Positions 3,978-40,316 of a stretch of 64,000 nt of DNA are shown here, in pieces. Under the pieces are notes generated by a model. That model did no database searches. It saw only the letters and a program-made list of their open reading frames with translations, and was not told where the DNA came from. Each line of letters starts with the position of its first letter. Position 1 is the first letter of the stretch. The position numbers were made by a program, and so were the translations under genes. The stretch covers positions 13,716,844 through 13,780,843 of the forward strand of contig NC_049985.1 of the NCBI RefSeq assembly GCF_000003815.2. The letters run 5' to 3'. The DNA is from Branchiostoma floridae (lineage: Eukaryota; Chordata; Leptocardii; Amphioxiformes; Branchiostomatidae).

Positions 3978-6900
3978 CTTACTTTACTTTACTTTATCCT
4001 TCCGCTTATGCCTGGGGGGGCGTCGCGGGGAGATGTAGGCATCTGTCTTGAGCCAGGTGTGTAGCCTCCAGAAGAGTCAGGCCATGTGCACGGACAGTCT
4101 CTGCCACTCCCTCTATCCACCTGCGGCGTGGTCTTCCTCTTGCCCTGACACCTGAGTGCCTGGTTGTGTAGGCTCGTAACGCTGGCTGCGTGGTTGGCAA
4201 TCTCATCAGGTGGCCAAACCACTGCACTCTCTGCTTGGCGATGAACTGTAAGACAGGTTTGGTTCCCACCAACTCTCTAACCACTTCATTCCTCACCCTG
4301 TCTCTCCTTGTTTTGCCAGCTGCTCTTCTCAGGACCCTCATCTCACAGCTTGTGAGTTTCCTCTCCTGTGCTCTGTTCAGGGTCCAGGTTTGACACTGGT
4401 ATGTGAGTGTCGGGACGAAGATGGCGTTGATGAGTCTGGCCTTGGTCTCCATAGGGATACTTGGGTGCTTTAGCAGAGGTGCTAGCTGGTAGTTGACAGA
4501 GTTTGCTTTCTGTATTCTTGTCTCAATCTCCCTGTCTAATTTCCCATCCTCTGTAAAAATGCTCCCCAGGTATTTGAACTCTGTGGCCTGTTTGAGGAGT
4601 TGTCCATTGACTGTGATCTCCAGTTTCTCTGGGCAGCGGCCAACTGACATCGATTCTGTTTTTCCTATGCTGATCTTCATATCATAACGATCGCATGCAC
4701 TGTTTAGTTCATCTGTGTGATGCTGGAGTTCCTCCTTGCTCTCATTCAGAATGCCTTGATCGTCAGCAAAAAGCAGTTCGTTCAAGTCCTCAGGATCTGG
4801 GTTGGCTTCCTTTGTTATCTTGTCCATGTACACTATGAACAGTAGAGGTGACAGTACACATCCTTGTCTCACTCCGGACCTTATCTGGAACCAGCTAGAG
4901 AGACCACTTGGTGTCTGTACTGCACTCTTGCTGTTATGGTAAAGTGCTCTTATATTCTCCAGAAGTTGGCCCTTTACACCGTACTGTTCCAAGATCTGCC
5001 AGAGTCGGTTCCTGTTTACCCGGTCGAAAGCTTTCTCCTGGTCGACAAAAACAAGGCGGAGATGCTTTTGGTACTCACAAGCCTTCTCACAGAGCTGTCT
5101 GAGTGCGAAGATTGCATCGGTGCAGCCTCTCCCTTTCCGGAAGCCAAACTGAGCTTCACTGAGCAAAGGGTCTACAATTGCTCTTGTGCGTTGCTCCAGT
5201 ATTTTTGCGAATATTTTCCCCGTGTGACTAATGAGTGAGATGCCTCTGTATGTGCTGCATTCTTTCTTGTCCCCTTTCTTCTTCCATATCGGAATCACAA
5301 CTGATTTCCTCCAGTCCTCCGGCACACACTGCTCCGCCCAAACTTTCTGGAAGATATTGGTTAGCCATCTGATGCCAGTCTCGCCACACGCTGTGATGGC
5401 CTCTACAGGAATCCCGTCGACCCCCGCCGCCTTATTCTTTGGACTGGTCTTCACTGCTCTCCGCACTTCTTCCTCTAGTATGTTGGGTTCCGTGTGCTCT
5501 GGGTAGCTGGGATTGAACCTGACGTGACTACTGTTCTCATCGACTGGGTTGAGGAGATCTCTGAAGTATTGTTCCCATCGCTGTTTAATCTTATCCTCCT
5601 CATATATGGGGTTTCCATCCTGGTCGTTTATCACAGGGGTTGGGTTGTAGGGTTCGTCCCTGAGTCTCATGGCTTTGACACTCCTGTAAAACTCCCGTGG
5701 TGACCGTTTGCAGAGCTCACTCAGTTCCTGTCCGTAGGTCTTCCACGAGGCGTCCTTTGCATGTTTCACCTCTCTCTTGCTCTTCCTTCTGGCTAGTCTG
5801 TATTTCACATAGTCTTCTTGTGTCTGTGATTTCACCCATACTTTGTAGAGTCTCTTCTTTTCCCGTACTGCCTCTTTTACCTCGTCATTCCACCACTTGG
5901 TGGCTTTCCTCTGACCTTTTCCATGTCTCTTCTTCCCGCATGTGTTCTTCAGGCAGTCTAGGAGTGTGTCTCTAAAGATGCACCATGTTTCTTCTGCACT
6001 CTTGTCTCGTGTGTCTTCTTGCTCTAGTCTCTCTGTGATTTTCCGTTTTATCTCTTCTTGTATGTCCATGTTCTTCCTGAGTTTGTTTAGGTTGATTTGT
6101 GGCTCGTGTGTCAGCTTTCGTCTACGGTTCCAGTTTGTCTTCCCTGTCATACTCATCAGCACTGGCCTGTGGTCTGTGTCCAGCCCGGCGTTTGGTACCG
6201 CCCGTGCATCTTGGACAGTGGTTCTCCTGGATGCCCTGGTGAGGATGAAGTCTATCTGAGATGAGACTGTCATGTCACTCCACCGGTACCAGGTCTGGGT
6301 GTGGCTGGGCCGATGTTGAAAGAGTGTGTTGGTGATGACCAGATCGAACTCTGCACACAGACTCAGGAGTTGGTGTCCATTATAGTTGCACTCTGTGCCT
6401 CTGTCACTGTGGGGGCCAAGGTATGCTGTCCATGGGTCTCTCCTTTTTCCAACTCTTCCATTGAAGTCTCCCATGACAACTATTTCCTCCTCATCAGCCA
6501 CTAGAGAGATACTGTCAGAGAGTTGTTCGAAGAACCTGTCCTTTTCTTCCTCTGTGTAGGAGTCATTGCAAGGTGCATACACTTGGAAGTAATTAGTTGT
6601 GTTGTCCTTATCCCTGATCGTGATTTTGATGATCCTCTCTGAGATGCAGACTGTGTCTGTAAGGTTCTTTGCTGTGTCGGGGTGTAGGATGAAGCCTACT
6701 CCATGGGTTGCCCTTTGGTTCTGCTCCACTCCACTCCACACTAGGACGTAGTTGAGGTGGATTTCCTTGCATCCTTTCCCCTTCCTTCTGCTGTCAGATA
6801 TACCCATGACCGAGATGTTTCGTCTCTCCATAAACTCTACAATCTCAGGTTCCTTGTCCCTAAGACCACATACATTCCATGTTCCTAACTTCGTCAAAGC

Positions 6901-7119
6901 CTGTCCGTTCCGGGTCTTTCCATTTTGATCCGTCCGATTACATCTCCTTTTGTTTCTTCGAGCAATATTATCCACTGCCGGCTTGCTGGGCCTGTCGCAG
7001 CTTCACCAGAGCCCCGTTAGCCAGATGGGTTGGTGTGCCGATGGTGTGGGCTATCCAGACTCCATCTGTTACCGTCTCCCACGACGAGGACGAGGGGTTG
7101 GACTTTGGGAGACAATTTT
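3978..7119 (-). mobile_element. Full-length RTE-like non-LTR retrotransposon
   Basis: A 3142 bp element on the minus strand, flanked by the perfect 10 bp direct repeat GTATTTCCTA. It has a ~140 bp 5' leader, one open frame encoding endonuclease plus reverse transcriptase, a 3' UTR of only 28 bp, and a short microsatellite tail of TAAAG units at the 3' end. Size, single ORF, minimal 3' UTR and microsatellite tail match the RTE/BovB clade; clade assignment is from this layout and the look of the protein, not a tree. The intact frame and undecayed target-site duplication point to a young insertion. It sits in the spacer of the 2775-9470 inverted duplication and so is younger than it. Confidence 0.9.
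4006..6975 (-). CDS. LINE endonuclease-reverse transcriptase polyprotein
   Basis: An open frame of 989 codons with no internal stop. Residues ~29-275 are an APE-type endonuclease: GTWNV (31-35), GDFNGRVG (169-176), QIDFIL (240-245) and TDHRPV with the catalytic His (267-272). The usual metal-binding Glu of the ETR motif is replaced by Asp (GISDSRRKG, residue 61). Residues ~555-790 are reverse transcriptase: FGFRKGRGCTDA, LVFVDQEKAFDRV (Asp 645), SGVRQGCVLSPLLF and the catalytic FADD (736-739). The C-terminus carries the RVQWFGHLMR and RGRPRRRW stretches common in RTE-type ORFs. The frame opens after an in-frame TGA near 7003; its first near-cognate start is GTG at 6973-6975. The first in-frame ATG is about residue 49, inside the endonuclease, so the start used is unclear. 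Confidence 0.92.
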   Translation of the reverse strand: MDNIARRNKRRCNRTDQNGKTRNGQALTKLGTWNVCGLRDKEPEIVEFMERRNISVMGISDSRRKGKGCKEIHLNYVLVWSGVEQNQRATHGVGFILHPDTAKNLTDTVCISERIIKITIRDKDNTTNYFQVYAPCNDSYTEEEKDRFFEQLSDSISLVADEEEIVVMGDFNGRVGKRRDPWTAYLGPHSDRGTECNYNGHQLLSLCAEFDLVITNTLFQHRPSHTQTWYRWSDMTVSSQIDFILTRASRRTTVQDARAVPNAGLDTDHRPVLMSMTGKTNWNRRRKLTHEPQINLNKLRKNMDIQEEIKRKITERLEQEDTRDKSAEETWCIFRDTLLDCLKNTCGKKRHGKGQRKATKWWNDEVKEAVREKKRLYKVWVKSQTQEDYVKYRLARRKSKREVKHAKDASWKTYGQELSELCKRSPREFYRSVKAMRLRDEPYNPTPVINDQDGNPIYEEDKIKQRWEQYFRDLLNPVDENSSHVRFNPSYPEHTEPNILEEEVRRAVKTSPKNKAAGVDGIPVEAITACGETGIRWLTNIFQKVWAEQCVPEDWRKSVVIPIWKKKGDKKECSTYRGISLISHTGKIFAKILEQRTRAIVDPLLSEAQFGFRKGRGCTDAIFALRQLCEKACEYQKHLRLVFVDQEKAFDRVNRNRLWQILEQYGVKGQLLENIRALYHNSKSAVQTPSGLSSWFQIRSGVRQGCVLSPLLFIVYMDKITKEANPDPEDLNELLFADDQGILNESKEELQHHTDELNSACDRYDMKISIGKTESMSVGRCPEKLEITVNGQLLKQATEFKYLGSIFTEDGKLDREIETRIQKANSVNYQLAPLLKHPSIPMETKARLINAIFVPTLTYQCQTWTLNRAQERKLTSCEMRVLRRAAGKTRRDRVRNEVVRELVGTKPVLQFIAKQRVQWFGHLMRLPTTQPALRAYTTRHSGVRARGRPRRRWIEGVAETVRAHGLTLLEATHLAQDRCLHLPATPPQA

Positions 7120-12290: not shown

Positions 12291-15200
12291 CTGAAGAGAC
12301 ATGAAGTTCATTAATACCTACGCATGCAAACAAATAGGTCTTCACACTAAGGATCTAGCAGAAATGAAGTTTAATGTTACATTCTACAAGAAACTAAGAT
12401 GTAAAAACAGTGGCTAACCTTCCACATCATAGCTGTAGTCAAAGTTGGAGTCTTCGTTCTGGTAACTCTCAAAGGCAGCGGACACAGGGCGGCTGCTACC
12501 ATTGTCTCCTGGGGGACGGGGGAAGGATGTGTTTTTTATATAATCCATGGTAACTTCTCACCATTCTCTTGTCAATAATTTTGTATGTACATACATACAT
12601 GCTTATATACATATATAGTATATTATATATATTACACAAATCATCTGACATATGGGACAAATGATACCTAATATTTAGCTATAAGATGAGACCATAACAG
12701 ATATACTCCTCCCCACCTTGGTCGTAGTAGTCTGAGAGATCACTGTCCTGTCTGGTGTAGGGAAGGTCGCTCTCAGCATCACTCTCACTCTCTGACACCA
12801 GCAGGTCTTCCATCAGGGTGTCCTCCTGCTTACCTGGAGATTGCGGAGGAAAACATCATGTACAAATATGTCTGCTTGGTGTATATATATAGAAAAAGAA
12901 GGTTTCCATTCTTCAATATTCAGATCATGTTCATATAAATAAAACTGCCCTGTCAGCTGCCTAATACATGCACAATTCAATTTTTGTTACCAGTTGGTCA
13001 TCCGTATGGAACTTGAATTTTGATATTGAAAATTCTCCTCTACAGTTCTCTGTTATCTAGGGAAAAAGCGATTCACTCCCAGCTGTAGGCTCATCAGAAG
13101 TCAGGATATAGCATCACAGGTATGCATAACATCTCAGGGTAATAGAAGAAGGTTTTTACAGCATACTACAGGATGGTACTAGTAACCCATAGGGGATTTT
13201 GAAGAAGACCTCCAAATATCAAAACTGAAACAGAACTCCAGCTTGTAAAAAAGCTATGAAAGACCTATTACAGTAGTGGTGAACCCTGTGTGTCCTACCT
13301 GTATCCTCCTCCCCCCTGCCACGTTTGGACCGGTCCATCTCCATGGCCTCCTCGTCTCCCACCACATCGATGAAGTCAGCGTCTCCCACAGACTCCCTGG
13401 AGGGGCCGGGCTGGGGCTCCGTGGGCGGGGCACTCTCCCAGCTCTCATCATGGGCTGTGGTGGTGTTATCCAGCAGACTGTCCTCCTCCATGTCTACATC
13501 ACCAGGCTGGGGAGTACAGGTGAAAACATCAGACTCTAAGTCTAACTCTCTTGTCTCTTTGGCCTGCTATTAAGACTTTAAATGCACTCAAAGTATTCAC
13601 TTATGTAGAATGCAAAGCAAGAAAGACATCATAAATCATTTGTACAAATTTAGCAAATTGTCAGTGGGGCTAAGGTTATATACTGTAAATGCAGAAATGT
13701 TTGCGGTGGATTAATGTTCGCGGTTTTCGCGGTGACCACTTCACCGCGAATTTAAAACTACCGCGAACATTTTTCTATTATGATATTAGATTGCAGTGTA
13801 TGGTGTTACCGCGAACTTAAATCCACAGCGAAAAGTCCTTTTTCCGGCTACCGCGAAATTAAATCCCCGCGAACTTAAATACATTTACAGTATTACACTG
13901 CTTATGGACTTATGTTGATGAAGGCTACACAACAGTGTAATAAGATACATGATACAAAAGTTACAATCCCATTGTTATAAACGTGTGTAGCAATGGTTTC
14001 TTGAGTTAACTGAGTTACCTGAGGACTGTTGGGGTTGGAGGGCAGGTTATATACAGATGAGTATAACAATGGTTTCTAGAGTTAACTGAGTTACCTGAGG
14101 ACTGTTGGGGTTGGACAGCAGGTTATATACAGATGAGTATAACAATGGTTTCTAGAGTTTAAAGCCTGTTTACCTGAGGACTGTTGGGGTTGGACAGCAG
14201 GTTATATACAGATGAGTATAACAATGGTTTCTAGAGTTAACTGAGTTACCCGAGGACTGTTGGGGTTGGAGGGCAGGTTATATACAGATGTGTATAACAA
14301 TGGTTTCTAGAGTTAACTGAGTTACCTGAGGACTGTTGGGGTTGGACAGCAGGTTATATACAGATGAGTATAACAATGGTTTCTAGAGTTAACTGAGTTA
14401 CCTGAGGACTGTTGGGGTTGGACAGCAGGTTATATACAGATGAGTATAACAATGGTTTCTAGAGTTTAAAGCCTGTTTACCTGAGGACTGTTGGGGTTGG
14501 ACAGCAGGTTATATACAGATGAGTATAACAATGGTTTCTAGAGTTAACTGAGTTACCTGAGGACTGTTGGGGTTGGACAGCAGGTTATATACAGATGAGT
14601 ATAACAATGGTTTCTAGAGTTTAAAGCCTGTTTACCTGAGGACTGTTGGGGTTGGACAGCAGGTTATATACAGATGAGTATAACAATGGTTTCTAGAGTT
14701 AACTGAGTTACCCGAGGACTGTTGGGGTTGGAGGGCAGGTTATATACAGATGTGTATAACAATGGTTTCTAGAGTTAACTGAGTTACCTGAGGACTGTTG
14801 GGGTTGGACAGCAGGTTATATACAGATGAGTATAACAATGGTTTCTAGAGTTAACTGAGTTACCTGAGGACTGTTGGGGTTGGACAGCAGGTTATATACA
14901 GATGTGTATAACAATGGTTTCTAGAGTTAAAAGCCTGTTTACCTGAGGACTGTTGGGGTTGGACAGCAGGTTATATACAGATGAGTATAACAATGGTTTC
15001 TAGAGTTTAAAGCCTGTTTACCTGAGGACTGTTGGGGTTGGAGGGCAGGTTATATACAGATGAGTATAACAATGGTTTCTAGAGTTAACTGAGTTACCTG
15101 AGGACTGTTGGGGTTGGAGGGCAGGTTGCTGCCATCTTGGTCCTCGTCCTGCATGGCGGCAGCGATGGCGGCCTCCTGAGCATGGCGGATATCGTTCTCC

Positions 15201-33200: not shown

Positions 33201-36200
33201 TTTCCAATATCTTAGCATCATTTGAGTTTGGATCGGAGTTGGCCCTAGGAGAGACTCCGATCGCAATCTATACTAGTAGAATCGTCGATTCTCCTAGGAG
33301 AGACCCCGATCGGAGCTGGCCCATGCAGAAAAAAGTATTTTGAGCGCTGGAAACTTAAGTTGTATCTTGTGAGATGTCAGTAAAATGCCCATACCTGTGG
33401 GTCCCAGATGATGTCATCTTCCCAGTTCCCATACACCAGCTCAGGGTTTTCCACAGGGAACAGTGAGTACCACAGCTGCTCATCATCTGGGTCTGAAGCC
33501 AACAAGGAACTTGCTGAGAATATATCAATATCTTAAAGACACAATCACACACTTGGTATTGAATGATAGATATTGAGACATAAGAGGGTTGGTTCAATAC
33601 TTATTGCAATGGGTGGTTCAGCAAAGGTTTTTTGAAGGCTCAAATATAACATGGATTGGCCCTAACATCACTCACCTTGCTGGTTCTTTCCAGACGATGT
33701 GGAGGGTATACTGTTTGGGAGAGTCACATTGATGTTCAAACCTGTAATGACAATGAAAAACAATACAGGCATGAAATAGTCACTTTCACATCAATCTGTC
33801 CCAATCTAGTGTTAACTTTGCAACTTTTATTATGCTCTTTAATTTATTTATCCATTCTTCTCAAAATGGGTGGGTAGCCCCTACAACTTTTGAAAGTACA
33901 AAGTGAATTTTTAACAAAGAGGATTTGCAATGTATTAATATCTGAATATATATGCCTCCTCAGAGGAGAGGTTTTTGAAGAAAACAAAACTTGGGATCAG
34001 TGGTTAGTCCAGCTGACTGTTATGATTTTCTCCCTTCAGAAAACAGTACATGTTTCATTAGTAAGATTAGTAAGGAGTTGTTTGGTATTTTTAAGACCTG
34101 CATATTCCCCTTCCGTACCTTGTTGCGAGCTGAAGGACTGAGCAGTCCTACTGGTACTAGTTGGGATCCATCCTGCCATAGCTGCAGATTTAGACTGCAG
34201 TACTTTATCCTTGATCTGTTCCCCGTCCCACACTATATCATCCTCCCAGGACCTCTGTGCCACCATGTAGAAATACTCCTCCTCTGGAAACTCAGACTTT
34301 GGGACCACCTCTGCTTCTTCAGAGGTCTCCATGTCTTCTGGCTGATCTTCTGTCTTCTCTGTGGGTTCTTCTTTCTGGGGTTCAGGTTCGGAGGGCTTGG
34401 GGGGTTCTTTGGACTCTTCTCTTTCATCATCACCTTCATTGCCACTGTCACTGTCAGAATTCTGAAATAGGTGCATAACATGTATGTGGCCTCTTTCTGT
34501 AAATATTGACCATTGTAAAATTCTAATTGATATAACACACTCACACACTACATCAATTCTGCAGAATTTTCTACACACAGCAATACTCTATTTTAGTTAC
34601 CTAGGTAAAAATGCATGTATGTTACAATTTCAGCTTAACTGACATAATTGTGCAAAGCAAAGTCAGTAATACTGTTTGAATTTGTACCAATTGATAACAA
34701 GTAGTTTTTAGTCTTTTTATTAGGATCTATAGAGAGTTACAAAAAACATGATTGGCAGCCCTTTATGTTCATATCCTAATTGGACAAGAGTCAGATGTCT
34801 GAGATAGCATTATCCATAATCTTCAGCGCCAACATTGACAAGGGGACGCGATAGTGAATCATAGGAGCCGATGCAACTTGATTGGAAGAGGCGTTTATTC
34901 CATGATGCTCATTCAAGTACAGCCATGATAGAAGAGAGCGAAGAGGATCATGGGATCCCTGACAGTGAAGGCAGTGACGTCACTAACTCATTAACATTAC
35001 CCAATGGCGTGATTTCTCTTTATCTTCTTATCTCTCTTTCTCCTTTTTACCAAGTTATCATGTACTAACAACTGTGGAGAACAATGGAATACAATGTCTA
35101 AAAAAAACAGAGCTTGTTGTCGTAATAAAATGGTATAAATACTATAAATCTGCAAGGTGGGCATTAACAATGGTGAGGTCCATGAAGTAATCCCCTTAAC
35201 AATACTTTGGAAATCTAGATCTAATGAAAAGACAGATATAACATTACAAAATACATGAAGAAAATTGTTGACTAATGAGGTAAGGTTTGTTAAACACAAT
35301 ATGAGAGATAACATGTAACATCAGATTGTGAATACATTACGGACAAATGAAGGTAACAGTTGAACTGAAATAGATTGTCAATGTTTTTCTGTGAGACAAT
35401 GTCTAGCTACCATAAAGGGAAAATACAATATCGATTATCTGCAGAAGAAAGAAAAAAAAATACTGGTAAAGCAGAGTTCTGTTTGGGCAAAGTTCGTGAC
35501 TGTCAAAGTTCTGTGACTCTCTTGGCCGGAGGTGTTAACAGTTACAGTTCGGCGTGAGCGATGTTCTTCTCGGCTGGAGCANNNNNNNNNNNNNNNNNNN
35601 NNNNNNNNNNNNNNNNNNNNNNNNNNNNNNNNNNNNNNNNNNNNNNNNNNNNNNNNNNNNNNNNNNNNNNNNNNNNNNNNNCCGTGGGCGGTCCGCGTCA
35701 AATCGGGTAGAACGTTACGTTGAAGGTTGAACGAAAGAAACATGGCGGTTGGTGAATTTTGACGTTGTACTCACACGGCCGGGGGACACTGGGAAGATGC
35801 GGGGTTTTGCCGGATAGGTAAGCCGAGTATTACTCCCTGCGACTTCTATGAGTCCTCTGGGGGTTGTTCAGCGAAGCTGGCACAGGGATGAGGTGTAGAC
35901 ACGCATAACTTCCGACCAAGGGCTCCGCCGAGGAGCTAAGACCAGATCCCCTCCTGCACATGTGATGGCGCCATTTGTTAACCTACATCCTCATTTGCTA
36001 GTGGCTTCCCGTCCACTCAGAGTGCGATCTCCCCTGCTCAAAGTTCGGGTTTGGGCCTGGGTATCGTTTCCCAGCCGCTGCACACCACGCCAACATTGAC
36101 AAGGGTGATAGTGAATCATAGGAGCCGATGCAACTTGATTGGAAGAGGCGTTTATTCCATGATGCTCATTCAAGTACAGCCATGATAGAAGAGAGCGAAG

Positions 36201-39200
36201 AGGATCATGGGATCCCTGACAGTGAAGGCAGTGACGTCACTAACTCATTAACATTACCCAATGGCGCAGTGACTAACTCACTCTCAATCACTGATGACAG
36301 ATACTGGATGCTACCTGACGTCTGCCTCTTTTGAGAAACCATCCAGTCGCTTGCTTTGTCACTTCGTTAAAAGTCACTTCGTTGAGAGTGAGAGAGTGAG
36401 CTTGCTTTGTTTTATATCAGTGGTCGAAATACTTTTTTTAGGTATTCTGCAATATTGCAGAAAGTCAAAATTTTGTTCTGCAATTTGGAAATATTTTCTG
36501 CAAACACACAGTCAAGGCTCAAGCCTCTATACAATCCTTCTCAACCTAATAATGCCTTGCATTTAAGCCTGTCTGAAGCGGCAGAAGCTGCAGTACTGTT
36601 GCCAACCACAACTATAACCAGAGTATTAAATCATATCTAGTTTTGCAATGCATAGCATTACTGTGGTTTTTATTCTCTTACTCTATTTTTAATTTCAGTC
36701 TTCAAAGATGATCCTTTTCTGCAGGAAAGTTACCATTCCCTGATACCACCATGGGTCTTTTATCCACCTCGCCATGACACTACGGGCTACTAGTACTATA
36801 GCTTGCAGTATACCAATCAATTCATAAATGTACTAGTTAGTATCTCACTCACTTCCACACAACATACAATGTACTAATAAAGGTACATTTTGTACACCAA
36901 ATAAGAAACTGGATATGATTTTTGGAAACAGATTTTCAGGCAGCATCCAACTTTTGTCAGTGACACTGAGCAGATCTATTGAAGAGCAGGTCTCATACCC
37001 TAAGTATCAATTGATATGCAAAGGAGGTGAAGACAGCTTTTAGATAGCCCAATAGGAATCCAAGGTAAGACATTTAGTCAAGACAAGATACATGTTGTCT
37101 TGTAGGGGTGAGAATGCCACTAGTTTGCCAACATATTAGATCCATTGAATCACAAGCCTGATTTTTTCATTCTGCAAAATTGCAGATTGTTAAATTTTTC
37201 TTCTGCAATCTTGAAAATCCTTCTGCAAATTGCAGATTGCAGATGGGTATTTCGAACACTGTATATTATGTAGTGCTTTACCTGAATGTCTAAACTTCAT
37301 TGACATAGATAATGACAAATTGACCAGGTGAAAAGTTGAGATTCACCTGCGCCAGTTTGAAGCCATAGTCGAAGCCCTCTCCAGTCTCGGGCACCCCCAG
37401 CATGTCGTACCAGTACCTGGCAGGGCCGTATCTCCACTCAGGGATCTCTGGTCTGTTGTCATCATTTGAAGCCTCTTTCCTCACACCTGTGTCAGGTAAA
37501 GCTTCCATGGGGCGCATCATCTTCTCCTAGGTAATAGGGAAAGTTTCATTCAGAAAAGAACATATAGTAGGCATAACCACCGTGGTTAGCAAGCGAAAGT
37601 CGTGAGCCAGCGGTCACTATGGAGGATGATACTCAGGCTAGTATTGAGGCATAGACATGTGTTGATATGTGCAGTCCAACACTTCTTGTCCCAACATCAC
37701 CGATGAAAGCCAATTTCAAGTTAAAATATGCACAAATATAGAAAAAGCTCTCTGCCAAGCTACTTAACTATTGTATTGTTTCTAGGTGTTATTTGTATGT
37801 GCACCCAGAGCCTCACTGAGAAGCAGGGCTAGTCACTGATGAGAGCATACCCTGACCATTAGTTAGTTAGTTAGTTAGTTAGTCCCATAGCCTTTTAATC
37901 AGCCGTAGGCTGATTAATCAGCCGTAGGGGCAGCACGACAACTGTCATGCTGACTCATCAGGCTTTTAGTCCCCTGGCGGCGCCTATCTCCTCTCCGGGG
38001 CAGAGGGCCTGGCCATAGGGCCTGGTAAAAGAATACTGAAATAAACAGTCTAATTTCCACTGTAGAGTCAACATGCTTGTTATCTCAAGGTCTAAACAGA
38101 AGCTGCAGTTTGAAAGAAAAAGCTAGGGGGCCCAAAATGTTCCCACCTCATCATCAGACATCCACTGGTCAGGAGGAGGAATGGGTGCGTAGTCAAACTC
38201 CCACTCGTAGGAATCCTCCAGAGGTTCTTCTCCCGTTGGCCTGCGCCGTTTTCTTCTGCGCTTGGCGCCTCTCCAAATCTGCGGCAAGGATGACGGTTTC
38301 CCTGGCCCNNNNNNNNNNNNNNNNNNNNNNNNNNNNNNNNNNNNNNNNNNNNNNNNNNNNNNNNNNNNNNNNNNNNNNNNNNNNNNNNNNNNNNNNNNNN
38401 NNNNNNNNCACATATCTGGACCCCTTCAGGCGCAACCTAATGTTTAGCTACAATAATGAAAGCCTTTTTGTTATTTGTAGTATTTTTTGACAGAGAATAA
38501 ACATTTGCACAAATATTTGATGCACAAACTTTGTGCTGCTGGAAATTTCATACTATTAACATTAGAAATTATACTTACCACTTGAGCTTGTCTGACTGTC
38601 CTGCTCATCATCTCCATTGTTATCGGTATCTGCTGTGATCTCCTGAACCAGGCTACCAAATCCTCCAAGGGAGTTCAACTGATTCAAGTGTCGCTTGGAT
38701 TCCTGTGGCACAATCATATATTTTACATCAACCAAAACTAAAAATTATAGTTACAGTGTATATGGCAAGTCTACGAAAACCTCGCCTTCCGCACTGGTGT
38801 TCCAGTGCTGATTCAATTGTCTGAACGGCCTCAGCACTGGTTTTCCAGTGCTGAATTTCTTTCAGCACTCGTTTTCCAGTGCTGATCGGCCTTGTTCCAG
38901 TGCTGAAACTCACTCAGCACTGGTTTTCCAGTGCTGAATTTCTTTCAGCACTCGTTTTCCAGTGCTGAACTTCTGTAGCACTCGTTTTCCAGTGCTGATT
39001 GCCGTCAGCACTCGGTTACCAGTGCTGAAATACGGGGATATCGGGGCCGGGTCAAGTCAAAGGTCATTCAGCACTGGTTACCCAGTGCTGAAACTGCCGT
39101 CAGCACTGGAACCGAGTGCTGATATACAAAAACCTCGCCTTCTGCACTGGATTTACCAGTGCTCGAGGACACTTCAGCATTGGAAAAACAGTGCTATGAA

Positions 39201-40316
39201 ATCTTCAGCACTGGAAAACGAGTGCCGACGTCTTTTAAGGACTGGAACGATGTGCGAACCAGTGCTGACGTCCTTCCAGCACTGGAATCTCCCAGTGCTG
39301 AGAGGGGTACAAGGCGTAAATTCGAAGGAAAAATAAGTTATTCCATGCAAAGAAAATTGTAGTTGTGCTATCCATTCGTTATGTAATTGAATATATGTAT
39401 ACTGTATAAGGGATATATATCATCTATAAAATGAATGAATGAATGAAGACCTTTATTGCACGTTTTTTTTAATAAAGTACTGATAGCGGTACTAGTAAAA
39501 GGACGCAAATTCGAATTAAAGTTACTTCGATACAATTGCATGCCGGGACAACTACCCAAGTAGAAAAAGCAAAGAGTATTTCCATACAGATAATGTTTTT
39601 TGTTCGGGAAATGAAATGAGTTGTAACATTACGTGCGTTTTTTAATAATTTCATAAATCTTGTAGGTTTTAGCTTTGAGATAGTAGATAGTGTAAGTTGC
39701 TAACGTTACATGCAAAATAAAGCATTTTGTTGTGAATGATATACAAATGTAGTTTCGTGTTTGTGATTTCTTTAACATAGTAGTAGAGCAAAGTACGTAT
39801 CGTAATTCCAAATTACTGTATAACTCAGAGTCTCCCGATCTCTCAGCACTCGGTTTCCAGTGCTGAATGTTCGTCAGCACTCGTTTTCCAGTGCTCAATG
39901 TTCGTCAGCACTGGAAATCCAGTGCTGAATGTTCGNNNNNNNNNNNNNNNNNNNNNNNNNNNNNNNNNNNNNNNNNNNNNNNNNNNNNNNNNNNNNNNNN
40001 NNNNNNNNNNNNNNNNNNNNNNNNNNNNNNNNNNNGATCTGGGTTCAGTGCTGAAAAGGAGGGCGAGGTTTTCGTAGTTTTGCGTGTATATGATTTGAAC
40101 TCGTCATCAAACATGAACTGCAAACAAGCTTAAAATGTCGTCATGAATCAATTTACTATAATTTACTAACAGTGTGTGGAAAGCAGAAAATAGACCAAAC
40201 CTAACCTGGTCCAAAATATCGTCATCTTCAAGTTGCCCCTTCTGATCGATGTTTCCAAACAGAAACCCGGTCAGAGACAGGGGCGGCTCACGGTCGTCTT
40301 CGTCACCAGAATCCAT
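11932..40316 (-). CDS. TAF1: TAF1, TFIID subunit 1 (gene span, 37 coding exons seen)
   Basis: TAF1 is the scaffold of the general transcription factor TFIID in the nucleus. It binds TBP, TAF7, promoter DNA and acetylated histones. In order the exons give the N-terminal TBP-inhibitory TAND segment ([10 protein letters not shown]), acidic linkers, the conserved central DUF3591/acetyltransferase-like block ([33 protein letters not shown]), the winged-helix region ([14 protein letters not shown]), a zinc knuckle CX2CX4HX6C ([16 protein letters not shown]), two bromodomains each with the YNG acetyl-lysine Asn, and a long acidic tail. All visible exons have GT-AG borders and compatible phases; they sum to 5395 coding bases, about 1800 residues. 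Vertebrate TAF1 is about 1870-1890, and the shortfall is explained by the gap at 38309-38408 between exons 2 and 3. The start ATG (40314-40316) follows an in-frame stop, so it is the first possible ATG. Stop is TAA at 11932-11934. Confidence 0.97.
12419..12508 (-). CDS. TAF1: TAF1 exon 36 (acidic tail)
   Basis: [29 protein letters not shown]; phase 1-1, a multiple of three, so it could be skipped without a frame change. Confidence 0.9.
12717..12833 (-). CDS. TAF1: TAF1 exon 35 (acidic tail)
   Basis: [20 protein letters not shown] matches the YEDLLMSEGE block of vertebrate TAF1. Acceptor CTCCAG|GTAAGC, donor CCAAG|GTGGGG. Confidence 0.92.
13299..13506 (-). CDS. TAF1: TAF1 exon 34 (acidic tail)
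   Basis: [60 protein letters not shown]. Acceptor TCCCCAG|CCTGGT, donor ATACAG|GTAGGA, phase 1. Confidence 0.9.
13681..13892. mobile_element. 212 bp palindromic MITE (TACTGTAAATG termini)
   Basis: Perfect 11 bp terminal inverted repeats TACTGTAAATG / CATTTACAGTA. The interior is built from inverted pieces of CGCGGT/ACCGCG (TTCGCGGTTTTCGCGGTG against ACCGCGAA). If the outer TA is the target, it fits a Tc1/mariner-type MITE. It lies in the intron between TAF1 exons 33 and 34. Confidence 0.75.
13991..15145 (-). repeat. Fifteen-copy tandem array of an exon-intron junction (76-79 bp unit)
   Basis: Copies start (by CAATGGTTTCT) at 13991, 14067, 14143, 14222, 14298, 14374, 14450, 14529, 14605, 14684, 14760, 14836, 14912, 14991 and 15070. 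Periods are 76 or 79 bp. On the minus strand each unit contains the last coding bases of TAF1 exon 33 (CCAACCCCAACAGTCCTCAG), its GT donor and intronic sequence. Two variants alternate: donor followed by GTAACTCAGTT or by GTAAACAGGC. Two copies have CTCGG instead of CTCAG before GT. Only the copy at 15070 is joined to the full exon. Confidence 0.95.
15098..15223 (-). CDS. TAF1: TAF1 exon 33, whose donor end is copied in the adjoining array
   Basis: [20 protein letters not shown], then an Asp/Asn/Pro-rich end [10 protein letters not shown]; donor CCTCAG|GTAACT. The last ~30 coding bases, the donor and ~45 intronic bases recur 14 more times in the following intron. I use the first donor because reading past it meets a stop within 18 codons. 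Confidence 0.93.
15764..15916 (-). CDS. TAF1: TAF1 exon 32 (bromodomain 2, Asn exon)
   Basis: [40 protein letters not shown]; the YNG Asn is intact. Phase 0-0. Confidence 0.97.
16299..16391 (-). CDS. TAF1: TAF1 exon 31 (bromodomain 2, WPF shelf)
   Basis: [31 protein letters not shown]. Phe replaces the second Tyr of the vertebrate PDYYK motif. Confidence 0.97.
16650..16789. repeat. 67 bp perfect direct duplication
   Basis: 16650-16716 and 16723-16789 are identical (TGTCTGTAACTCAAAG to GTACGTACGG), period 73, in the intron just downstream of TAF1 exon 30. A TTTA run lies next to it. Confidence 0.9.
16838..17028 (-). CDS. TAF1: TAF1 exon 30 (between bromodomains)
   Basis: Ends bromodomain 1 ([20 protein letters not shown]) and starts bromodomain 2 ([20 protein letters not shown]). 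Donor CCCAAT|GTAAGG. Confidence 0.97.
17434..17518 (-). CDS. TAF1: TAF1 exon 29 (bromodomain 1, Asn exon)
   Basis: [28 protein letters not shown] with the acetyl-lysine-binding Asn; donor AATG|GTGAGT, phase 1. Confidence 0.96.
17975..18166 (-). CDS. TAF1: TAF1 exon 28 (bromodomain 1, start)
   Basis: [57 protein letters not shown]. Holds the TYPF shelf and ZA loop of the first bromodomain. Confidence 0.97.
18435..18552 (-). CDS. TAF1: TAF1 exon 27
   Basis: [35 protein letters not shown]; a second basic nuclear-localisation-like stretch. Acceptor TATCCAG|GGCTGC. Confidence 0.95.
18650..18860 (-). mobile_element. tRNA-derived SINE
   Basis: On the minus strand: an A-box-like TGGCATAACTGTTAGAGCG, then a B-box-like GGTCCTGAGTTCAATACTC at tRNA spacing, then a non-tRNA body with GGGAAAGGCACTTAACACGA and CTTCCTCACTTCACTC. 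It lies in the TAF1 intron between exons 26 and 27. The tRNA part is too degenerate to be a working tRNA gene. Confidence 0.7.
19005..19213 (-). CDS. TAF1: TAF1 exon 26 (zinc knuckle)
   Basis: [20 protein letters not shown] has the intact CX2CX4HX6C knuckle used in promoter binding, then [12 protein letters not shown]-like [13 protein letters not shown] and [12 protein letters not shown]. Donor GACCA|GTAAGT. Confidence 0.97.
19485..19587 (-). CDS. TAF1: TAF1 exon 25
   Basis: [16 protein letters not shown] followed by a Pro/Lys run (PPPKKKKKK), a likely nuclear localisation signal. Confidence 0.95.
19909..19968 (-). CDS. TAF1: TAF1 exon 24 (60 bp)
   Basis: [19 protein letters not shown], basic coiled segment before the zinc knuckle; acceptor TTGCAG|TAAGAAC, donor AGAAG|GTTGGT. 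Confidence 0.95.
20316..20452 (-). CDS. TAF1: TAF1 exon 23
   Basis: [40 protein letters not shown]. Donor TTCAT|GTAAGT, phase 2. Confidence 0.96.
20616..20721 (-). CDS. TAF1: TAF1 exon 22
   Basis: A Ser/Asp/Arg-rich linker, [20 protein letters not shown] to IGSSF. Acceptor GCACAG|AGAC, donor TTC|GTAAGT. Confidence 0.93.
20878..20954 (-). CDS. TAF1: TAF1 exon 21
   Basis: [20 protein letters not shown]; acceptor CACCAG|ATCACC, donor GACCG|GTGAGG, phase 2. Confidence 0.95.
21408..21531 (-). CDS. TAF1: TAF1 exon 20
   Basis: [40 protein letters not shown]. Acceptor CTACAG|GGTCC restores the Lys codon split with exon 19; donor CAACAG|GTAATT. Confidence 0.97.
21640..23120. repeat. Repeat-filled part of TAF1 intron 19, with a tandem duplication
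   Basis: 22404-22747 and about 22787-23114 are near-identical copies, each from CCTAAGCAGACATAAATAAAAC to CATTTCATGGAGGTAA; the translated frame [16 protein letters not shown] occurs in both. The end is the CATGGAGGTTATATTTTC motif also found at about 55979. The flank 21640-22400 also holds CCTCCATGAAAT near 21669. Confidence 0.8.
23593..23744 (-). CDS. TAF1: TAF1 exon 19
   Basis: [50 protein letters not shown]. Donor AACAA|GTATGC, phase 2. Confidence 0.97.
24336..24506 (-). CDS. TAF1: TAF1 exon 18
   Basis: [38 protein letters not shown]; phase 0-0. Confidence 0.97.
24928..25050 (-). CDS. TAF1: TAF1 exon 17
   Basis: [34 protein letters not shown]. Acceptor CTGCAG|GTGCGC, donor ATCAAG|GTGGGT. 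Confidence 0.97.
25505..25585 (-). CDS. TAF1: TAF1 exon 16 (81 bp)
   Basis: 27 codons, [20 protein letters not shown] to IDDE; phase 0-0. Confidence 0.97.
25937..26067 (-). CDS. TAF1: TAF1 exon 15
   Basis: [20 protein letters not shown], then [20 protein letters not shown]. Acceptor TTATAG|GCATGG, donor CTCAAG|GTACGG. Confidence 0.97.
26457..26598 (-). CDS. TAF1: TAF1 exon 14 (winged-helix part 1)
   Basis: [40 protein letters not shown]. This is the winged-helix DNA-binding segment of TAF1. Donor ACTG|GTGAGA, phase 1. Confidence 0.97.
27011..27125 (-). CDS. TAF1: TAF1 exon 13
   Basis: [38 protein letters not shown]. Acceptor TTTCAG|TTACT, donor CTCCAG|GTAAGG. Confidence 0.97.
27223..27517. 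mobile_element. Foldback (inverted-repeat) element in a TAF1 intron
   Basis: TTGGACAAG at 27223-27231 and CTTGTCCAA at 27509-27517. Further in, TGTCCTGGGCAAGTA is answered by TACTTGCCCGATAGGACA. No coding capacity; a MITE-like remnant between exons 12 and 13. Confidence 0.55.
27612..27802 (-). CDS. TAF1: TAF1 exon 12
   Basis: Encodes [36 protein letters not shown] and [11 protein letters not shown]; acceptor CCACAG|AAAGCT, donor GTGCA|GTGAGT, phase 2. Confidence 0.96.
28211..28384 (-). CDS. TAF1: TAF1 exon 11
   Basis: 58 codons: [20 protein letters not shown], then [18 protein letters not shown] and [14 protein letters not shown]. Phase 0-0. Confidence 0.97.
28793..28925. repeat. Two-copy tandem repeat (~70 bp)
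   Basis: TTTCTTGTATTGGATCCAAT...CCAGATGTCAG occurs twice in a row, with a 15-20 bp difference in the middle, in the intron between TAF1 exons 10 and 11. Confidence 0.75.
28942..29115 (-). CDS. TAF1: TAF1 exon 10
   Basis: Begins [19 protein letters not shown] and continues through the near-invariant IKLRQ and PGPHSV blocks to KKKAK, the core of the conserved central domain. Confidence 0.97.
29807..29929 (-). CDS. TAF1: TAF1 exon 9
   Basis: 41 codons, [20 protein letters not shown] then GGNLVQ; acceptor TTTGCAG|TCC, donor GTGCAG|GTGACT. Confidence 0.96.
31275..31460 (-). CDS. TAF1: TAF1 exon 8
   Basis: 62 codons including [19 protein letters not shown] and a Lys-rich stretch; acceptor TTCTAG|AAT, donor GACCAG|GTTTGG, phase 0-0. 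Confidence 0.95.
31780..32166. mobile_element. 387 bp element with 25 bp perfect terminal inverted repeats
   Basis: 31780-31804 and 32142-32166 are exact inverse copies, starting CATCCTCCTACGCACGGTCC. The interior has two long direct repeats around TAAGCTCATTAATATTTATAAGCAG...CGGCGAGTT. No coding frame. The right end abuts the gap at 32168, so a target-site duplication cannot be checked. It lies in the TAF1 intron between exons 7 and 8. Confidence 0.85.
32168..32442. other. Assembly gap (275 N)
   Basis: Run of N directly next to the TIR element, in the TAF1 intron between exons 7 and 8. No TAF1 coding part appears to be missing here. Confidence 1.
32960..33321. repeat. Three-copy minisatellite, 119 bp unit
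   Basis: Units start at 32960, 33079 and 33198 with CTGTTTCC(A/T)ATATCTTAG. Each carries the palindromes CTCCTAGGAG and TCCGATCGGA-like pieces, so the unit itself can fold. It lies in a TAF1 intron just downstream of exon 7. Confidence 0.9.
33395..33492 (-). CDS. TAF1: TAF1 exon 7
   Basis: Encodes [20 protein letters not shown] and [12 protein letters not shown], strongly TAF1-like. Acceptor TTCAG|ACC, donor CACAG|GTATGG. Confidence 0.95.
33676..33741 (-). CDS. TAF1: TAF1 exon 6 (66 bp)
   Basis: A small phase 1-1 exon encoding [20 protein letters not shown]; acceptor TTACAG|GTTTGA, donor CAAG|GTGAGT. A multiple of three, so skipping would keep frame. Confidence 0.88.
34119..34461 (-). CDS. 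TAF1: TAF1 exon 5
   Basis: The longest internal exon: an acidic Glu/Pro/Ser-rich insert, then [18 protein letters not shown] and [16 protein letters not shown]. The acidic insert (~60 residues) is larger than in vertebrates. Acceptor TTTCAG|AATTCT, donor CAAG|GTACGG, phase 1. Confidence 0.94.
34827..36266 (+). repeat. Direct repeat pair of ~180 bp flanking 1.08 kb
   Basis: 34827-35009 and 36088-36266 are the same sequence apart from a 4 bp indel near the start. Both keep an ATG frame reading [20 protein letters not shown] and then [12 protein letters not shown]. The DNA between them contains the gap 35582-35681 and a GC-rich, promoter-like stretch (35680-36087) with AAACATGGCGG. It could be an LTR-like or captured-exon element or a duplication; it is inside the TAF1 intron between exons 4 and 5 on the opposite strand. 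Confidence 0.8.
35582..35681. other. Assembly gap (100 N)
   Basis: Round-number N run, probably a gap of unknown size, between the direct repeats in the exon 4-5 intron of TAF1. Confidence 1.
36418..37261. mobile_element. 844 bp non-autonomous DNA element with CAGTG termini
   Basis: CAGTGGTCGAAATAC (36418-36432) and its inverse GTATTTCGAACACTG (37247-37261) match at 14 of 15 positions. Subterminal TTCTGCAAT/ATTGCAGAA repeats sit inside both ends. TATAT flanks both sides (36413-36417, 37262-37266). The CAG start recalls hAT termini but an 8 bp duplication is not seen. Confidence 0.7.
37347..37526 (-). CDS. TAF1: TAF1 exon 4
   Basis: 60 codons with the hallmark [18 protein letters not shown] and GFDYGFKL; acceptor CCTAG|GAG, donor GCGCAG|GTGAAT, phase 0. 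Confidence 0.96.
37859..37882. repeat. (TTAG)n microsatellite
   Basis: Six tetranucleotide units in a TAF1 intron, followed by GC-rich sequence containing a repeated AATCAGCCGTAGG. Confidence 0.9.
38147..38308 (-). CDS. TAF1: TAF1 exon 3 (5' part lost in gap)
   Basis: 54 codons after the gap, [20 protein letters not shown] to [11 protein letters not shown], donor GAG|GTGGGA in phase 0. Corresponds to the FGPGK...VWR block of vertebrate TAF1. About 100 residues between exon 2 and here are not visible. Confidence 0.92.
38309..38408. other. Assembly gap (100 N) hiding TAF1 coding sequence
   Basis: Falls inside TAF1 exon 3. The region between exon 2 and the visible part of exon 3 corresponds to roughly 100 residues in vertebrates, so one or more exons or exon parts are lost here. 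Confidence 0.95.
38579..38702 (-). CDS. TAF1: TAF1 exon 2
   Basis: Acceptor CCACAG|GAATCC, donor AGTG|GTAAGT. Encodes [18 protein letters not shown], matching the second N-terminal element of TAF1. It ends in phase 1 and the continuation lies in the gap. Confidence 0.93.
39311..39837 (-). mobile_element. Insertion carrying a CR1-like LINE 3' tail
   Basis: On the minus strand the segment near 39429-39460 reads GTGCAATAAAGGTCTTCATT followed by three more CATT units, the AATAAA plus short-tandem tail typical of CR1/L2-type LINEs. The rest of the segment has no reverse transcriptase frame, so at most a 3' remnant is present. It splits the hairpin-module transposon. Confidence 0.5.
39936..40035. 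other. Assembly gap (100 N) in the hairpin array
   Basis: Lies within the hairpin-module element, most likely because the near-identical palindromes could not be assembled. The true number of modules is therefore unknown. Confidence 0.95.
40206..40316 (-). CDS. TAF1: TAF1 exon 1 (TAND segment)
   Basis: 37 codons from ATG ([12 protein letters not shown]) through [10 protein letters not shown] to ILDQ; donor CAG|GTTAG, phase 0. This is the TBP-contacting N-terminal domain. A longer frame starting at TTG (40328) is not needed. Confidence 0.95.

What the first reader, a model, noticed from the sequence alone, without database searches (positions are those of the whole stretch)
38756..40092. Transposon made of ~19 palindromic hairpin modules with 9 bp target-site duplication
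GTGTATATG flanks an element with 25 bp inverted termini. Inside is a chain of TCAGCACTSG...CCAGTGCTGA modules in two orientations with variable loops and 8-40 bp spacers. A third internal copy of the terminal motif suggests modular growth. Such a chain could form a multi-hairpin RNA in the TAF1 pre-mRNA or a ladder of cruciforms in DNA, or act as an array of protein-binding half-sites. It has no transposase, so needs a Mutator- or Merlin-like partner.
Basis: partly seen in the sequence, partly recalled or inferred. Interest (0 to 1): 0.75.

Follow-up and report, generated by a model that had tools for sequence, protein, structure and literature searches.

The report
Amphioxus transposon with phased palindrome arrays
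A stretch in an early intron of the TAF1 gene of what is probably the Florida amphioxus is one of many copies of a small "jumping gene" that carries no enzyme of its own and is packed with regularly spaced palindromes that look like docking sites for a borrowed transposase.

Summary
Window 38765-40083 is a transposon flanked by an exact 9-bp duplication (GTGTATATG), with 26-bp inverted termini, 16 recognisable palindromic modules and an internal third copy of the terminal motif. A 100-N assembly gap cuts the right array. Of 31 copies delimited at both ends, 24 have an exact 9-bp duplication and 27 at most one mismatch; of 756 mispaired flanks, none.

Three subfamilies differ in an 8-bp block inside the terminus. 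Left and right ends agree in 60 of 60 pairs, the internal copy in 23 of 23 copies. Recurrent module spacings (about 21.5, 31, 42, 52, 63, 72 bp) are near multiples of the DNA helical turn. Variation inside modules is one-sided, not compensatory, so I read them as phased protein-binding dyads rather than selected hairpins.

Best reading: a non-autonomous, probably Mutator-like family with unusually regular subterminal arrays. No autonomous partner was found; the one transposase near an end lies in a nested insert. One 11.8-kb copy could not be read. My literature searches found no description; Repbase could not be checked.

The parts
38756..38764 (.). left copy of the 9-bp target-site duplication GTGTATATG
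38765..38790 (+). left terminal inverted repeat, GCAAGTCTACGAAA + subfamily-A octamer ACCTCGCC + TTCC
   Evidence: (I25)
38788..39301 (+). left array: 13 palindromic modules (starts 38788, 38831, 38862, 38914, 38945, 38975, 39005, 39068, 39100, 39141, 39174, 39205, 39276) plus single half-sites
   Evidence: element positions converted to window coordinates; for half-sites
39125..39150 (+). internal third copy of the terminal motif, carrying the same subfamily octamer ACCTCGCC
   Evidence: (D8)
39312..39832 (.). middle without an open frame of 100 aa; its flanks are shared with other subfamily-A copies, while about 39530-39778 is not shared with 14 copies compared
39843..39928 (+). right array: 3 modules visible before the assembly gap
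39936..40035 (.). assembly gap of 100 N inside the right array
40058..40083 (-). right terminal inverted repeat, GCAAAACTACGAAAACCTCGCCCTCC read on the minus strand
40084..40092 (.). right copy of the 9-bp target-site duplication GTGTATATG
40209..40316 (-). host gene: apparent first coding exon of TAF1 ([25 protein letters not shown]...); the element lies in the intron 3' of it
   Evidence: weak match to the TAF1 N terminus (E 5e-4); another TAF1 exon at E 5e-27

Best explanation
The finding is one copy of a multi-copy, non-autonomous cut-and-paste DNA transposon family, most likely mobilised by a Mutator-type (MULE) transposase made elsewhere. SHOWN: the 9-bp duplications; the inverted termini; 143 left-end and 152 right-end matches; three subfamilies whose left, internal and right copies of the terminal motif change together; and arrays of a 10-bp half-site in dyads (TCAGCACTGG-N4-CCAGTGCTGA) whose recurrent spacings lie near multiples of one helical turn. 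INFERRED: the octamer within the terminus is the specificity contact of the cleaving transposase (three copies must match one protein); each dyad is bound by a dimer of the transposase or of an accessory protein that it encodes; and the helical phasing puts the dimers on one face of the DNA, so that they form a regular nucleoprotein scaffold that recruits transposase and helps pair the ends. Arrays grow and shrink by 31-bp modules, probably through replication slippage or unequal exchange. In TAF1 this copy lies in an intron and is probably tolerated passenger DNA.
For: Duplications: 21 of 28 copies exact over 9 bp and 24 of 28 with at most one mismatch, against 0 of 756 mispaired flanks; three more long copies are exact as well, so 24 of 31 exact; of the 28, only L062 matches over 8 bp and none over 10 bp. 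Copy number: 143 left-end and 152 right-end matches, 0 for the reversed patterns. Co-variation, octamers assigned to the nearest class: 60 of 60 left-right pairs alike; the internal copy agrees in 23 of 23 copies (21 A, 1 B, 1 C), with six more B or C loci agreeing by eye. Phasing: best period 10.4 bp, R 0.90, over all spacings under 120 bp; six merged spacing groups give V 0.964, p 7.5e-6 by simulation. Half-sites conserved, pairing not: 465 one-sided cells, 8 two-sided (26.4 expected if independent), 1 compensatory, in 447 modules. A Mutator-type source is plausible: PF20700 40 and PF10551 27 matches in this genome; animal MULEs with 8-9-bp duplications and subterminal tandem repeats are in print (PMC5225508, passages).
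Against: No autonomous element was found. L069 and L070 (4.2 kb) are lengthened by nested reverse-transcriptase frames. L068 (9.9 kb) gave no Pfam match in 8 of its 9 frames of 100 aa or more. An 11.8-kb copy on C5 could not be read. Of 82 transposase matches, one (PF20700, C146) lies 2.9 kb from an end, inside what I read as a nested insert; the next nearest is 10.6 kb away and outside; end lists are capped at 100. Four short copies (125-405 bp: L028, L045, L051, L061) have few modules yet duplications with 0-1 mismatch, so long arrays may not be needed, unless these are deletions after insertion. All spacings derive from one ancestral layout and the classes were chosen after seeing the data; giving each of the 25 distinct rounded spacings one vote, R is only 0.33 at 10.4 bp, and spacings seen in 1-2 copies are hardly phased (V 0.24). 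Ten left ends had no right end in the stretch read. The module scan accepts at most 5 mismatches, which favours conserved modules. Binding was not measured.
Confidence: 0.65

Rival explanations
1. The same transposon, but mobilised by a non-Mutator transposase: Merlin (IS1595-like), a KDZ element or an undescribed superfamily with 9-bp duplications.
For: A 9-bp duplication does not name a superfamily; Merlin-type (3 matches) and KDZ-type (12 partial matches) transposases are present in this genome. No family with termini GCAARTMTACRAAA was available for comparison here.
Against: Merlin matches are very few (3), KDZ matches are fragments (at most 94 of 217 model positions), and the nearest of them lie 336 kb (Merlin) and 30 kb (KDZ) from an end in the capped lists (2 of 3 and 2 of 12 lie on contigs without a listed end).
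Confidence: 0.3
2. The palindromes are selected as hairpins or cruciforms (in DNA for replication-linked mobility, or in TAF1 intron RNA).
For: Single strands fold far better than dinucleotide shuffles: plus-strand DNA of the left array z -17.2, minus-strand RNA z -15.7.
Against: Any chain of palindromes folds so. In 191 of 447 modules position 9 of the half-site is C on one side only, which breaks the pair, and only 1 of 473 variant cells is compensatory. No Rfam family reaches its threshold in the window. Hairpin-driven movement would not predict 9-bp duplications.
Confidence: 0.1
3. A tandem minisatellite that arose in place (for example a 'mirage' of amphioxus genes), with the flanking 9-bp match a coincidence.
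For: A 31-bp tandem pattern is detected, and amphioxus genes are known for unstable intronic minisatellites (PMC3087553, passages).
Against: 143 left-end and 152 right-end matches genome-wide, and 21 of 28 exact duplications against 0 of 756 controls. The published mirages duplicate exon-intron boundaries; this element does not.
Confidence: 0.01

Closest known systems
Muta1 and relatives, Mutator-like elements of Aedes aegypti (PMC5225508, passages including part of the abstract)
   Same: 8-9-bp target-site duplications without sequence preference; subterminal repeats inside the ends; many non-autonomous derivatives with variable numbers of subterminal repeats.
   Different: Muta1 repeats are 12-bp tandem repeats with 3-4-bp spacers within a 145-bp TIR. 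Here they are about 24-bp palindromes mostly at 31-bp steps, with a short 26-bp TIR and an internal extra copy of the terminal motif. The transposase is known there and not here.
CACTA (En/Spm, Tgm) elements with subterminal repeats (PMC2613891, passages including part of the abstract)
   Same: Arrays of direct and inverted short motifs near the ends that can form a series of stem-loops (12 on the right and 2 on the left in Tgmt*), described as binding sites for TNPA-like proteins; subfamilies differ in motifs.
   Different: CACTA ends and 3-bp duplications there; GCAA ends and 9-bp duplications here.
Plant MULEs with multiple or tandem TIRs (PMC3310237, passages including part of the abstract)
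   Same: Extra internal copies of the terminal sequence in Mutator-like elements, a group described with 9-11-bp duplications; sequence conservation of both copies.
   Different: There the extra copies are whole TIRs, typically 100-500 bp; here it is a 26-bp motif about 0.35 kb inside the left end, which changes together with the ends between subfamilies.
Rehavkus (outgroup of MULEs; PMC6446971, passages)
   Same: 9-bp duplications and a minisatellite inside the element before the 3' TIR.
   Different: Described from arthropods and annelids; no Rehavkus sequence could be compared here.

Membership tests
Mutator-like elements (MULE) | target-site duplication of 8-11 bp | tested here: met
   9 bp: 24 of 31 exact, 27 of 31 with at most 1 mismatch; 0 of 756 mispaired flanks
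Mutator-like elements (MULE) | MULE-type DDE transposase encoded by an autonomous member with the same ends | tested here: inconclusive
   PF10551 27 and PF20700 40 matches in the genome; one PF20700 match lies in a nested insert at C146, the others on contigs with listed ends are 10.6 kb or more from those ends; end lists capped at 100 and one 11.8-kb copy unread
Mutator-like elements (MULE) | TIRs, in many MULEs 100 bp or longer | tested here: inconclusive
   the alignable TIR is 26 bp; MULE groups with short or no TIRs are tabulated in PMC6446971 (passages), so this neither proves nor excludes
Merlin | IS1595-type transposase in an element with these ends and 8-9-bp duplications (duplication length of Merlin recalled) | tested here: inconclusive
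   duplication length compatible; 3 PF12762 matches, the nearest 336 kb from a listed end, two on a contig without a listed end
CACTA / En-Spm | termini beginning CACTA and 3-bp duplications | tested here: not met
   termini GCAA..., duplications 9 bp
amphioxus mirage minisatellites | tandem duplication of an exon-intron boundary | tested here: not met
   the element lies inside the intron with its own termini and target-site duplication

The most novel reading that the evidence does not exclude
A transposon lineage whose ends are built as a regular nucleoprotein scaffold: a terminal specificity octamer, repeated internally and changing in concert in all three places, attached to up to 23 palindromic dyads per copy spaced at whole helical turns, served by a transposase (or pair of proteins) of an undescribed lineage.
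Probability: 0.25. Interest if true: 0.7.

Novelty: new variant of a known kind. Interest (0 to 1): 0.45.

Why it matters
Subterminal repeat arrays are known in several transposon groups; arrays as regular as these were not described in the papers that I saw. Natural variation supplies three matched sets of specificity octamers and copies from 76 bp to over 1.5 kb, so one can ask directly how many dyads, at what spacing and with which octamer, a transposase needs. A survey reported limited evidence of MULEs in chordates (PMC6446971, passages); this genome shows both Mutator-type transposase matches and a large non-autonomous family with Mutator-like duplications.

Tried and rejected
Autonomous partner: I paired listed left and right ends and looked at the long pairs. 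C6 (L069) and C2 (L070), 4.2 kb each, are lengthened by nested reverse-transcriptase frames. C7 (L068, 9.9 kb) has no frame over 139 aa, and 8 of its 9 frames of 100 aa or more gave no Pfam match. C5 (11.8 kb) could not be read. C146 (L064, L067) looked like an autonomous copy because a PF20700 transposase follows a left end, but the insert is bounded by AGAGTTAA...TTAACTCT with AT on both sides and splits the left array, so I read it as a nested element of another family.

Heterogeneous middle (Pack-MULE-like): suspected because about 250 bp of the window copy's middle is not shared, but 14 other copies share a middle with one another; the genome search with the window's middle did not complete.

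Faults mended: a regex run kept only 143 modules and was replaced. The internal octamer was read one base off (22 of 23 concordant) and was corrected (23 of 23). One of 29 pairs (L058, minus) is an artefact, pairing with an internal copy; 28 were used afterwards. L015 and L026 also have both ends, by a looser reading, and were left out of the 28: by eye L015 matches 7 of 9, and L026 shows a 9-bp repeat only after 8 extra bases. In one search the last two of 100 listed left ends were left out (98 used) with all 100 listed right ends. In one search some transposase matches and right ends were left out of the distance list; one search repeats it with the full printed lists.

Literature: no description of this family was found. 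Searches: (9 of 10 allowed). Repbase could not be searched, so it may be named there.

Full report
What is there. Window 38756-40092 holds an exact 9-bp repeat, GTGTATATG, on both sides of a 1319-bp element. Its ends are inverted repeats of 26 nt, 88% complementary. Between them are a left array of 13 palindromic modules, an internal third copy of the terminal motif at 39125-39150, a middle without a frame of 100 aa, and a right array of which 3 modules are visible before a 100-N assembly gap. The strict module pattern occurs 13 times in the window (both strands) against none in 100 shuffles. The host gene is TAF1 on the minus strand: one exon fragment matches TFIID subunit 1 at E 5e-27, and the apparent first coding exon, 40209-40316, matches its N terminus weakly (E 5e-4). 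The element lies in the intron after that exon. The genome has 513,431,437 bases in 431 contigs; that this is the Florida amphioxus, Branchiostoma floridae, is my recall of the assembly size, not a tool result.

It is a repeated mobile element. The module pattern has 1157 forward and 1238 reverse matches genome-wide and none for the reversed control (symmetric modules count on both strands). A left-end pattern with eight free internal bases has 143 matches and a right-end pattern has 152, again with no control matches. In one search my filter found both ends in 28 copies (after dropping one artefact) and a left end without a right end in 10. Of the 28, 21 have an identical 9-bp flank on both sides and 24 differ at one base at most; 756 mispaired flanks give none with fewer than two differences. 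Three longer copies, L068-L070, are exact too, though the flank of L068 is a simple CA-rich repeat; this makes 24 of 31. Of the four misfits, L009 and L066 show the 9-bp repeat with 5 or 2 extra bases at the left edge (by eye), L062 matches over 8 bp, and L033 does not match. The 24 good duplications show no clear sequence preference. Subfamily-A left arms differ from their majority sequence by 3.6% on average (22 copies, range 0.6-24.9%; the top value is probably L022, which aligned poorly).

The termini change in concert. Between GCAARTMTACRAAA and TCC lies an octamer that falls into three classes: ACCTCGCC (A, the window copy), GCTTCACC (B) and GTAACGGG (C). Pairing 98 of the 100 listed left ends with the 100 listed right ends within 20 kb gave 60 pairs; with each octamer assigned to its nearest class, all 60 agree. 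The internal third copy carries the class of its own element in 23 of 23 copies in which it was found (21 A, 1 B, 1 C), and in six more loci of classes B and C read by eye (L014, L016, L068, L069, L070, L071). Some left ends of class C carry the right-end version of the block (L071), which suggests conversion between ends. I infer that the octamer is a specificity contact of the transposase and that the internal copy is also bound.

The arrays are nearly helically phased. Module centres recur at 31, 42-43, 52, 63 and 72 bp, with 21.5 in three cases. Over all spacings under 120 bp in 28 copies the best period is 10.4 bp (R 0.90). Because copies share one ancestral layout, I also tested distinct distances: seven chosen classes give p 6.5e-5 at 10.4 bp, six merged groups p 7.5e-6. 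Against this: giving each of the 25 distinct rounded spacings one vote, rare ones included, R is only 0.33 at 10.4 and 0.36 at best, and the 22 classes seen in one or two copies have V 0.24. I read the rare ones as decay of single copies, but the choice of classes was made after seeing the data.

Binding dyads rather than hairpins. Among 447 modules in 28 copies the half-site core is nearly invariant, while position 9 carries C instead of G on one side only in 191 modules (147 left, 44 right). Of 473 variant cells, 465 are one-sided, 8 two-sided (26.4 expected if independent) and 1 compensatory (modules with more than 5 mismatches are not counted). Plus-strand DNA and minus-strand RNA of the left array fold much better than shuffles (z -17.2; z -15.7), but a chain of palindromes must do so. 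No RNA family reaches its threshold in the window.

The partner. Matches in this genome: PF20700 Mutator 40, PF10551 MULE 27, PF12762 Merlin-type 3, PF18758 KDZ 12. Against the ends printed, one PF20700 match lies 2.9 kb from an end (C146) and the next nearest 10.6 kb (C10), on the outer side of its end; for the other three models the nearest are 19, 336 and 30 kb (5 of the 82 matches lie on contigs without a listed end). The C146 case is a class-A left array split after its first module by an insert with its own ends, which carries the transposase. The lists of ends are capped at 100, and the longest paired copy (11.8 kb, C5) could not be fetched, so the autonomous element may still exist. 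Two 4.2-kb copies contain nested reverse-transcriptase frames; a 9.9-kb copy has no Pfam match in 8 of its 9 frames of 100 aa or more.

Comparison with known systems. The closest working analogues are animal MULEs with subterminal repeats (Muta1, PMC5225508), CACTA elements with subterminal inverted motifs bound by TNPA (PMC2613891) and plant MULEs with extra TIRs (PMC3310237); I saw passages of each. The 9-bp duplication fits MULEs and does not fit CACTA. Membership in MULE is likely but not proven, because no transposase is linked. A survey of MULEs (PMC6446971, passages) could not find MULE transposases in B. floridae; the profile matches here suggest that some exist, although matching a profile is not proof of an active element.

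Verdict. New here: the copy number, the subfamily concordance of all three terminal motifs, the near-helical spacing and the absence of pairing conservation. The kind of element is known; the regular palindrome arrays make it an unusual variant.

Noticed in passing
window 4006-7002, minus strand: A 998-codon open frame with reverse transcriptase and endonuclease domains, like a non-LTR retrotransposon.
   Followed up: partly
window 13991-15127: A tandem array of about 76-bp (and 155-bp and longer) units with 92-96% matches.
   Followed up: no
window 34791-34979 and 35991-36236: The same stretch of more than 100 bases (over 40 identical residues in one minus-strand frame) occurs twice, 1.2 kb apart, within the TAF1 gene.
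   Followed up: no
L067 and L064 (C146:194000-208400): A subfamily-A left array is split after its first module by an insert of about 6.5 kb with ends AGAGTTAA...TTAACTCT and AT on both sides (or TTAA inside), carrying a PF20700 Mutator-like transposase in two frames.
   Followed up: partly
L071 (C4:10743820-10747800) and several other left ends: Left ends of class C whose inner block reads like the right end (GTAACGGTCTCC), suggesting conversion between ends.
   Followed up: partly
whole genome G000: Matches to two Mutator-type, one Merlin-type and one KDZ transposase model, although a published MULE survey could not detect MULE transposases in B. floridae.
   Followed up: partly
window 39530-39778: The central 250 bases of the window copy are not shared with 14 other class-A copies, which share a different middle.
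   Followed up: partly
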